Shown one piece after another: positions 57,404 through 60,070 of a stretch of DNA of 64,000 nt. The translations under genes and the position numbers were made by a program. The stretch's first letter is position 1. Each line of letters starts with the position of its first letter. This stretch comes from a virus, in IMG/VR virus record IMGVR_UViG_3300042991_000780, positions 31,173-95,172 of that record; one strand, given 5' to 3'. Under the pieces are notes generated by a model that had not been told where the DNA came from, searched no databases, and worked only from the letters and a program-made list of their open reading frames with translations.

Positions 57404-59500
57404 ATGAATAAATCACAACGAATTAAGTTAGATATTAATAACGTTAATATTGATAAACACATAAAAGTAAAACTTGAACAGGATGTTGATACCATTGAAT
57501 TTTTAAGTATGAATATCAACGCCAAAGATGTGTATCGAGATTTTAATGCAGATTATGGCGTATTGGTTGGTAGAGTAACCGCTAACGGTGGTATTGGAAT
57601 ACCTAATGCAAGAATAAGTGTATTCATACCGCTTACCGATGAAGATGCCGGATTTGGTGAAACATATAGCATTTACCCGTATAAGACACCAAGAGATAAA
57701 AATCTTAGCGGAAAACGATATAATTTATTACCACGAGTTGGAAAAAGAGACCCCGTTACTGGCACAATATCACCAAAACAACCATTTGGATCGCTTCCAA
57801 TAAAAGAAGAAATTATAACCAATGAACCATACTTAAATATATATGGAAAATATTATAAACACACAGCATTAACAAATAATGCTGGTGATTATATGATATT
57901 TGGTGTTCCGATTGGTACACAAACTATTCATTTAAGTATTGATATTACAGACATTGGTGAATTCAGCATGACACCCGCAGCAATGGTTACTAACTTAGGA
58001 TATTCACCAAACTTATTTACAGATAATAACACCAAAATTAAGCCAAGTATTGACCTAAACGACCTTCCACATATTGAAACACAAGAAATTAGCGTTGATA
58101 TAATACCTTTTTGGGGTGATGCCGAAAATTTTGAAATTGGAATAACCCGTCAGGATTTTAGAGTTAGATCAGTATTACAAAATACTTTCATTATTTTTGG
58201 TGCTGCATATACTGATGGTGAGAATTCACAATGGGGTGATCATTATAGAGATGGGATGCAAATTATTGAAATGTATCATATTTCTGATGACGAAAATGAA
58301 AATCTTGGTATTGTTAGTAAAAGAATAGGTAAAATTACAGAAAGTATATATTATTATCCAAGTTCATTATCAGATGCTCAAATCTCAGGCGGAACACTTG
58401 ATGCACGAACAGCAATGATTAAATTATCACCAACAGAATATTCATCATATAAAAGAGATGGTGATTTTGTGTTTATTATTAACTGTAATAGAAAAAAGGT
58501 TATGACATCTGAAACTGGTGAGAAAATTAATGTTTCTGATGATTATCCGGGTGGTGTTTACACAGAATTTAAAGGAAGTTTAATTTTGGAATATACGAAA
58601 GATGAAGTTCCAATGAACTGGACACTATATCTTGATACATCCGGTACAAATAGAGGTAGACTTCTTCCGGTAAGAGAAAGATATAAATTTCCACAATCAG
58701 CAACAAAAGCACATTCATTCAGAAAAGAAGTGGACGAACAATCAGTAAACGACACACAGGAATGGAGAAGACAATATTACACATTTGAAGCAGGTAAATT
58801 ATATAGTATTGCTAAATTTCACGGTATTGTTGAAAACCGTGATGATGGTGAAGATGATCAAAACGTAGTAGAAGGTTTCTTAACTGGTGACTATATAAAC
58901 ACAACGGTTGGTGCAGCACTTGGTAACTTAGTTGGTATGATTCAAACAAATGATTATGGCACAACTGGAAATACAATATATGAAATGCCACATAATGCAA
59001 CTGGTGATGCAAGTAGAAGAGATATTTTTGTTGCAAACTGGATGAATTTTAGTGTATATTTCCCACAAATGGGAAACTTGGTTTCACATCTTAACAGAGT
59101 TAGATATATGCGATCAAACAGCCATTTTAGTCAGAATTTCAAAAATGACAGTTCTAATCATTTTTATCAAGATAATGCACAACCAATTATAGGTGGTGAT
59201 TTTAACACAAAATGGCTTGCACGTTCTGATTTAAACTGGACTGATTTCATCGAAGTGCCGGAAGAAGATATCAGAACAATTATATCAAATATTGGCGGGA
59301 AAAAAGGATTCACATCTGGTGATATTAGTGGTGGGTTACTTGGTGATTATAAAAACGGTCAAGACCCCTGCCCAATGAATGGCGGTAAAATAAATGGAAA
59401 TCCTGCAGAAATTGCTGATCCAGAAACATATTTCTTTCGTGGATTTGCTGGTTCTGATTGTATAAGTTATCTAATTGAATTAGGTATTGTTAATGAATAA
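57404..59500 (+). CDS. Large virion protein with a carboxypeptidase-regulatory-like domain
   Basis: A 698-residue protein. VLVGRVTANGGIGIPNARISVF near 49-70 followed by NNAGDYMIFGVPIG near 160-173 is the split pattern of a CarboxypepD_reg/Ig-like beta-sandwich, often used in adhesins. The rest is Asn/Tyr/Gly-rich beta structure. It is probably part of the tail fibre or baseplate-attachment apparatus. Late motif 15 bases upstream; a strong terminator follows the stop by one base. Confidence 0.65.
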   Translation: MNKSQRIKLDINNVNIDKHIKVKLEQDVDTIEFLSMNINAKDVYRDFNADYGVLVGRVTANGGIGIPNARISVFIPLTDEDAGFGETYSIYPYKTPRDKNLSGKRYNLLPRVGKRDPVTGTISPKQPFGSLPIKEEIITNEPYLNIYGKYYKHTALTNNAGDYMIFGVPIGTQTIHLSIDITDIGEFSMTPAAMVTNLGYSPNLFTDNNTKIKPSIDLNDLPHIETQEISVDIIPFWGDAENFEIGITRQDFRVRSVLQNTFIIFGAAYTDGENSQWGDHYRDGMQIIEMYHISDDENENLGIVSKRIGKITESIYYYPSSLSDAQISGGTLDARTAMIKLSPTEYSSYKRDGDFVFIINCNRKKVMTSETGEKINVSDDYPGGVYTEFKGSLILEYTKDEVPMNWTLYLDTSGTNRGRLLPVRERYKFPQSATKAHSFRKEVDEQSVNDTQEWRRQYYTFEAGKLYSIAKFHGIVENRDDGEDDQNVVEGFLTGDYINTTVGAALGNLVGMIQTNDYGTTGNTIYEMPHNATGDASRRDIFVANWMNFSVYFPQMGNLVSHLNRVRYMRSNSHFSQNFKNDSSNHFYQDNAQPIIGGDFNTKWLARSDLNWTDFIEVPEEDIRTIISNIGGKKGFTSGDISGGLLGDYKNGQDPCPMNGGKINGNPAEIADPETYFFRGFAGSDCISYLIELGIVNE

Positions 59501-59501
59501 A

Positions 59502-59530
59502 AAAACCCCGATTATCGGGGTTTCTTTATT
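59502..59530. terminator. Bidirectional terminator
   Basis: AAACCCCGA/TCGGGGTTT hairpin followed by TTTCTTTATTTT on the plus strand and T5 on the minus strand. It closes the structural gene and the convergent lipoprotein gene. Confidence 0.85.
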
Positions 59531-59987
59531 TTGTTAAGGTAATTATACCACCAATATATGGATATAATGAGGGTACTGTATCAAGTCGCAACATTAATTG
59601 ATTATTATCATAACTAATAACAGTAAATGTATATTTGATATCATCATTCACATAACCAAACGTATTAAATTTAATTGTGTCAACATCTTTAATAAAATCA
59701 AAAATAACACTACCACCAGCAGTACAAACCCAATCCATAAGCACCGTCATTGCATCGATATCAAATGTTAAAGACGAGAACATATTTTCAATATTTTCGG
59801 GCATAAACATTGAGGAACAATTATATTCAGTTCCCTCAAAATTGAATGATACAAAATTCCACGTACCATTGAGATTATCGAGAGTTATCAAACCCTCATC
59901 AACAACAGGGTCATCGTCTTTGCAGCAACTGAAACTCATCAGAGTTATTGCTATCATAATCGTCATAAGATGAATTAAATTTTTCAT
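59526..59987 (-). CDS. Surface-exposed lipoprotein, lipocalin-like
   Basis: A 153-residue protein with an N-terminal lipoprotein signal: hydrophobic core LIHLMTIMIAITLMSFS, then C21. Directly after the cysteine, CCKDDD gives Cys, x, Lys, Asp, Asp, Asp, which matches the lipoprotein export signal that sends Bacteroidota lipoproteins to the cell surface. The rest (LNGTWNFVSFNFEG, then IGGIITLTK at the end) looks like a small lipocalin-type beta-barrel. A phage lipoprotein on the host surface suggests superinfection exclusion, for example blocking a receptor as T5 Llp does. No late motif upstream, so probably earlier expression. Confidence 0.75.
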   Translation of the reverse strand: MKNLIHLMTIMIAITLMSFSCCKDDDPVVDEGLITLDNLNGTWNFVSFNFEGTEYNCSSMFMPENIENMFSSLTFDIDAMTVLMDWVCTAGGSVIFDFIKDVDTIKFNTFGYVNDDIKYTFTVISYDNNQLMLRLDTVPSLYPYIGGIITLTK

Positions 59988-60062
59988 AAATTTTTCGTTT
60001 TAATTTGTATATAATACGTAAATATTCTGAAAATATTGCAAAAAACATAAAAAATTTTTAAG

Positions 60063-60070
60063 GTATTTAT
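60063..60070 (+). promoter_or_regulatory. Late-promoter motif GTATTTAT
   Basis: AGGTATTTATTATATATGG immediately before the ATG at 60076; the ATG is five bases after the motif, the closest spacing in the window. Confidence 0.5.

What the first reader, a model, noticed from the sequence alone, without database searches (positions are those of the whole stretch)
59526..59987. Phage lipoprotein with a Bacteroidota surface-export signal
Cys-x-Lys-Asp-Asp-Asp after the lipobox matches the lipoprotein export signal that places lipoproteins on the outside of Bacteroidota cells. The gene is isolated among fibre genes, opposite in direction, without a late motif. It could block the receptor against superinfection.
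Basis: partly seen in the sequence, partly recalled or inferred. Interest (0 to 1): 0.6.

Follow-up and report, generated by a model that had tools for sequence, protein, structure and literature searches.

The report
Early phage lipoprotein beside tail gene
Large viruses of Bacteroidota bacteria carry, between two tail genes, a small lipid-anchored protein that is probably made early in infection, may be displayed on the cell surface, and changes its version together with the neighbouring tail protein; it looks like a lock that keeps further viruses out of an infected cell, but nobody has tested that.

Summary
ORF 59526-59987(-) encodes a 153-aa lipoprotein with the sequence ...LMSFS|C-C-K-D-D-D, matching the experimentally defined C-X-K-(D/E)2 surface-export signal of Capnocytophaga. 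It sits on the opposite strand between two + strand tail-region genes and lacks the late motif.

Relatives change the picture. Among about 54 distinct T4-like, often jumbo, phages, 33 carry an intact lipoprotein at this site; 17 have a clean 5-44 bp gap. Almost every copy has an early promoter (TTGTAAC-N15-17-CGTATA) otherwise found before rIIA, rIIB and small early genes. The mature domain is predicted lipocalin-like and diverges faster than its neighbours, yet is under purifying selection.

Its type tracks the variable C-terminal part of the adjacent tail protein (57404-59500): all 18 A types go with tail type I, all 7 B types with tail type II, in 4 of 4 independent switches. It does not track the gene on its other side. 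Phages T5 and BF23 show the same pattern: receptor-blocking Llp lipoproteins lie beside, and are swapped with, the receptor-binding gene.

Best reading: an early superinfection-exclusion lipoprotein, Llp-like in design but unrelated in sequence. Surface location and receptor blocking remain inferred.

The parts
59526..59987 (-). 153-aa lipoprotein gene (type A of the family)
   Evidence: homologs at the same site and orientation in 33 distinct phages; dN/dS below 1 in relatives
59928..59987 (-). signal peptide, residues 1-20, ending in lipobox SFS before Cys21
   Evidence: Sequence; conserved in relatives
59910..59927 (-). C-C-K-D-D-D: lipidated Cys21 and putative Bacteroidota lipoprotein export signal
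   Evidence: Exact fit to C-X-K-(D/E)2-X of PMC5080379; K at +3 in 25 of 34 site lipoproteins versus 6 of 37 chromosomal ones
59529..59882 (-). lipocalin-like mature domain, residues 36-153
   Evidence: AlphaFold pLDDT 80, pTM 0.70; Foldseek to lipocalins, 4qrl TMt 0.69; Pfam Lipocalin_4 weak hits in relatives
60014..60041 (-). early-promoter-like element TTGCAAT-N16-CGTAT, 26 nt before the ATG
   Evidence: Conserved as TTGTAAC-N15-17-CGTATA upstream of almost all site copies; 123 exact sites in ten large relatives, 0 for the reversed control; precedes rIIA, rIIB and small early genes
59503..59523 (.). hairpin terminator between the convergent lipoprotein and 698-aa genes
   Evidence: found by the scan on the + strand; the stem can also serve the - strand, my inference
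57404..59500 (+). 698-aa tail-region gene (fib698) whose variable C-terminus co-varies with the lipoprotein type
   Evidence: no known family
60062..60070 (+). late motif GGTATTTAT of the divergent 417-aa gene
60076..61329 (+). 417-aa tail-region gene (g417), divergent neighbour; does not co-vary with the lipoprotein

Best explanation
The gene is an accessory lipoprotein of a T4-like, probably jumbo, phage of Bacteroidota. It is transcribed from the phage's early promoter although it lies among late tail genes (promoter motif shown by comparison; expression not measured). The product is exported, lipidated at Cys21, carried to the outer membrane and, through C-C-K-D-D-D, probably flipped to the outer face (inferred). 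There its lipocalin-like domain is thought to bind and inactivate the receptor that this phage's own tail uses, which would stop wasteful re-infection of the occupied cell and loss of progeny on debris (inferred). Because the receptor is set by the tail, the mature domain is exchanged together with the variable part of the neighbouring tail protein (co-variation shown; functional pairing inferred).
For: Exact export-signal fit. Early promoter motif before nearly every copy, shared with rIIA/rIIB and small early genes. Lipoprotein type tracks the fib698 C-terminus: partial r 0.54, 0 of 1000 permutations; rising from 0.01 at residues 1-100 to 0.57 at 601-698; 18 of 18 A types with tail type I and 7 of 7 B types with type II; 4 of 4 independent switches agree. 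Accessory: 33 intact, 17 cleanly absent. Same design as T5 and BF23: llp next to oad, opposite strand, own promoter, cognate lipoprotein changes with the receptor-binding protein (PMC4728585). The only bacterial-genome hit of the phage group is a Bacteroidota MAG.
Against: Llp and Rtp45 act from the periplasm (PMC9586334, PMC12685063), so exclusion does not need surface display. Adjacent position alone could cause co-variation by linkage. Exceptions: L016 and L033 have near-identical tail C-termini but A and C lipoproteins; L019 and L020 lack the gene while sharing the tail type of L021; L031 has a C-type lipoprotein with tail type II. The tail gene is not shown to bind a receptor. Only 6 of 34 have the strict export motif.
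Confidence: 0.5

Rival explanations
1. Same exclusion function, but periplasmic: the lipoprotein stays on the inner face of the outer membrane and jams an outer-membrane receptor (for example a SusCD/TonB-type transporter) from below, as Llp does with FhuA.
For: Both structurally solved excluding lipoproteins are periplasmic (PMC9586334, PMC12685063). Several copies have a weak export signal, e.g. CTKPAND, CDPNEN, CKSCKP.
Against: The window copy has the optimal surface signal, and the site is enriched for K at +3.
Confidence: 0.2
2. A general envelope lipoprotein acquired from the host (ligand carrier, stress protector or modifier of the infected cell). It co-varies with fib698 only because they lie side by side and move in one recombination tract.
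For: Distant similar lipoproteins exist on Bacteroidota chromosomes; lipocalin-like folds often bind small ligands (general knowledge); the mature end abuts fib698, so linkage is a simple cause; other early envelope proteins occur in these phages and at this site (L030).
Against: The gene on the other side, equally close, does not co-vary (partial r 0.09); the pattern repeats at 4 independent switches; divergence is faster than in any neighbour, unlike a housekeeping carrier.
Confidence: 0.25
3. A lysis protein (outer-membrane spanin) or a virion component.
For: Phage lipoproteins encoded near late genes are often o-spanins (general knowledge); the gene sits among tail genes.
Against: Early rather than late promoter motif; predicted folded barrel; no overlapping inner-membrane partner gene; cleanly absent from 17 related phages.
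Confidence: 0.05

Closest known systems
Llp of phages T5 and BF23 (receptor-blocking lipoprotein)
   Same: Phage lipoprotein with its own promoter, on the strand opposite to the adjacent late tail gene; lipoprotein type changes with the receptor-binding protein (PMC4728585)
   Different: No sequence similarity beyond the signal peptide; 153 aa with a predicted lipocalin-like barrel instead of 77 aa; Llp is periplasmic; no function shown here
Rtp45 and Cor-type superinfection-exclusion lipoproteins (phages Rtp, T1, phi80)
   Same: Small lipoprotein opposite to the late tail genes
   Different: No similarity beyond the signal peptide for Rtp45; about 76 aa; periplasmic (PMC12685063)
Bacteroidota lipocalin-like lipoproteins (Pfam PF13648 Lipocalin_4; PDB 4qrl, 5byp)
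   Same: Predicted fold and N-terminal plan; weak Pfam hits in relatives; distant chromosomal matches
   Different: The window protein itself does not reach Lipocalin_4; phage-encoded, early promoter, tail-linked
Lipocalin-like proteins of other phages (A0A8S5MDH5, A0A8S5LA00)
   Same: Best structural matches among viral proteins
   Different: Weak similarity (TMq 0.45-0.56), no functional data, genomic context not examined

Membership tests
Bacteroidota surface-exported lipoprotein (LES type) | Type II signal peptide with lipobox and +1 Cys | tested here: met
   Sequence and invariant Cys21; SignalP was not available
Bacteroidota surface-exported lipoprotein (LES type) | C-X-K-(D/E)2-X directly after the lipobox | tested here: met
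   C-C-K-D-D-D against PMC5080379
Bacteroidota surface-exported lipoprotein (LES type) | Exposed on the cell surface | not testable with these tools
   Needs protease or antibody access on intact cells
Superinfection-exclusion lipoprotein (Llp/Cor type) | Sequence homology to Llp or Rtp45 | tested here: not met
   hhalign probability 20.8 and 5.9, signal peptide only. It may work like them; it is not filed as a member
Superinfection-exclusion lipoprotein (Llp/Cor type) | Early or independent expression beside the receptor-binding gene | tested here: inconclusive
   Early promoter motif present; that the neighbour binds a receptor is not shown
Superinfection-exclusion lipoprotein (Llp/Cor type) | Blocks adsorption by inactivating the receptor | not testable with these tools
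   Needs adsorption and plating assays
Lipocalin-like lipoprotein (Pfam Lipocalin_4, PF13648) | Score above the Pfam cut-off | tested here: not met
   Window protein has no Lipocalin_4 hit; 8 of 29 members touch it, best E 2e-4
Lipocalin-like lipoprotein (Pfam Lipocalin_4, PF13648) | Single antiparallel barrel matching solved lipocalins | tested here: met
   predicted model only; best E about 1e-3, 4qrl TMt 0.69
Outer-membrane spanin | Overlapping or adjacent inner-membrane spanin gene and late expression | tested here: not met
   No such ORF; early, not late, motif

The most novel reading that the evidence does not exclude
A new class of excluding lipoprotein: surface-displayed lipocalin-like proteins of Bacteroidota jumbo phages, each type matched to the receptor-binding part of the adjacent tail protein and exchanged with it as a cassette, so that lipoprotein type predicts receptor use.
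Probability: 0.3. Interest if true: 0.75.

Novelty: new variant of a known kind. Interest (0 to 1): 0.6.

Why it matters
My literature searches found no receptor-blocking lipoprotein described for Bacteroidota phages (open-licence papers only). If true, this is another solution to superinfection exclusion, with a different fold from Llp and possibly acting from the opposite face of the membrane. It also offers a way to find the receptor of uncultured jumbo phages: pull down what the lipoprotein binds. The early promoter, the clean presence/absence polymorphism and the two tail types make the idea directly testable.

Tried and rejected
Direct search of viral contigs with the lipoprotein found nothing, and the phage-record hits covered only about the first 50 residues at E 0.006-8. 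Relatives came only by walking from neighbours. The ApeA_NTD1 match (E 0.019) and the AcrIC5 match of one relative (E 0.052) are chance-level; PADLOC found nothing. The spanin idea was rejected (early motif, predicted barrel, dispensable). I suspected recoding in L066 (TGA at a conserved Trp), but the frame also has TAA and TAG, so it is a pseudogene. Positive selection is not shown: dN/dS is below 1. The type B/C model is of low confidence (pLDDT 75, TM about 0.4). The sigma-70 scan gave no excess of promoters. No close named phage was found for the tail genes apart from generic T4-type sheaths.

Full report
What is there. The window is bases 31173-95172 of a 95,172-base virus record. ORF 59526-59987(-) encodes MKNLIHLMTIMIAITLMSFS|CCKDDDPVVDEG.... 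It is convergent with a 698-aa gene (57404-59500 +, called fib698 here) and divergent from a 417-aa gene (60076-61329 +, g417). Nearby are a tail sheath and tail tube, so this is a contractile-tailed phage. Neither neighbour matches a known family, so calling them fibres is a guess. A hairpin terminator separates the convergent pair (59503-59523).

Relatives. The lipoprotein itself finds no relatives in viral contigs, because it is too divergent. Using the neighbours as anchors gave 81 viral loci, with duplicates, some on contigs of 200-349 kb, and one phage contig inside a Bacteroidota MAG (L111). In about 54 distinct sites, 33 have an intact lipoprotein gene between g417 and fib698, convergent with fib698. 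Seventeen have the two genes separated by only 5-44 bp. L017 and L066 hold remnants (L066 with TGA, TAA and TAG in frame). L030 holds a different secreted protein. L070 has a lipoprotein in the other direction. So this is an accessory gene at a fixed address.

Divergence. Median pairwise identity is 26% for mature domains, against 76% (254-aa tail gene), 66% (sheath), 49% (g417) and 47% (fib698). In five close pairs the lipoprotein has the highest or near-highest dN, with dN/dS 0.19-0.65. It is a functional but fast-changing protein. Subtypes A (GxWNFxS), B (YPxYVGxWxNDST) and C (YPxWxNLSWVST) are one family by profile comparison (99.1%; the signal peptide contributes).

Fold. AlphaFold on 18 type A sequences gives a helix plus barrel (pLDDT 80, pTM 0.70). 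Foldseek finds lipocalins, with the best target coverage for the Bacteroides lipocalin-like proteins 4qrl and 5byp. Some relatives touch Pfam Lipocalin_4 weakly. Bacteroidota chromosomes hold distant, similar lipoproteins.

Export signal. In Capnocytophaga the optimal surface signal is C-X-K-(D/E)2-X, and +3 is the preferred place of K (PMC5080379). The window copy fits exactly. At this site 25 of 34 have K at +3 and 6 of 34 the strict motif. Seven other early lipoproteins of the same phages have none. Thirty-seven chromosomal lipoproteins of three Bacteroidota genomes have 6 and 1. The enrichment is real, but the phage copies share descent, and the signal differs between Bacteroidota genera.

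Timing. Almost every copy is preceded, 25-58 nt before the ATG, by TTGTAAC-N15-17-CGTAT; the window has TTGCAAT-N16-CGTAT. In ten large relatives the exact motif TTGTAAC-N15-18-CGTATA is found more than 100 times (123 by my count of the table) and its reversed control never. Sites examined lie before rIIA, rIIB, a PurA-like gene and many small ORFs; L024 has one before a kinase-like gene. Many structural genes instead carry TATTTATA just before the start, and the sampled early regions have almost none of these. The lipoprotein is therefore most likely an early gene in a late region. Transcription was not measured.

Pairing with the tail gene. The mature-domain distance correlates with fib698 after removing the 254-aa gene, g417 and g278 (partial r 0.54, none of 1000 permutations as high), but not with g417 (0.09). 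A second calculation with a looser set of controls gave a weak g417 signal (0.17, p 0.014). Along fib698 the partial r is 0.01 for residues 1-100, 0.35-0.40 for 101-300 and 0.52-0.57 for 301-698; the signal peptide shows no link. The fib698 C-terminus has two deep types. All 18 type A lipoproteins sit with type I and all 7 type B with type II. Lipoprotein type changes 4 times on the fib698 tree, but 8 times on the sheath plus 254-aa tree and 7 on the g417 tree. Four of four independent switches agree (Fisher 7e-6 ignoring ancestry; a sign test on four pairs cannot reach significance). Exceptions exist: L016/L033, L019-L021, L031.

Reading. In T5, llp lies next to oad on the opposite strand with its own promoter. 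Llp jams FhuA, and exclusion proteins are made early (PMC9586334). BF23 carries an unrelated Llp matched to a different receptor-binding protein (PMC4728585). Rtp45 lies opposite to late tail genes. The present locus repeats this plan with an unrelated protein. I therefore favour superinfection exclusion (0.5 with surface display, 0.2 periplasmic). Linkage of a general envelope protein is the main rival (0.25). Shown: gene, site, polymorphism, promoter motif, export motif, co-variation. Predicted: fold. Inferred: early expression, surface location, receptor blocking, functional pairing.

Noticed in passing
G001-G010 (jumbo relatives), e.g. L104-L108: TTGTAAC-N15-18-CGTATA is a general early-promoter-like motif of this phage group: over 100 exact sites in nine of ten records, none for the reversed control.
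   Followed up: partly
window 8523, 13615, 16657, 17487, 40862, 43995, 53966, 54277, 57383, 60062, 62920: A late leader motif TATTTATA/GGTATTTAT lies a few to about 40 nt before many structural start codons, unusually close to the ATG.
   Followed up: partly
L030 19118-20249: The same site holds a different secreted 174-aa protein preceded by two copies of the early motif.
   Followed up: no
L104 8835-9380: An early lipoprotein of family phrog_24725 in a phage whose tail site is empty.
   Followed up: no
L079 12806-13651 and L083 13236-14081: A 281-aa membrane protein that looks like pentapeptide repeats shares the site with the lipoprotein.
   Followed up: no
L055 12871-13614: The lipoprotein carries an extra domain, Ig-like by eye, before the lipocalin-like domain.
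   Followed up: no
L073 13500-14545: Two tandem lipoproteins with the same signal peptide and different mature domains, each with its own early motif.
   Followed up: no
L111 (JAKQEK010000355.1): The only GTDB hit of this phage group is a contig binned with a Bacteroidota MAG, an independent hint at the host phylum.
   Followed up: partly
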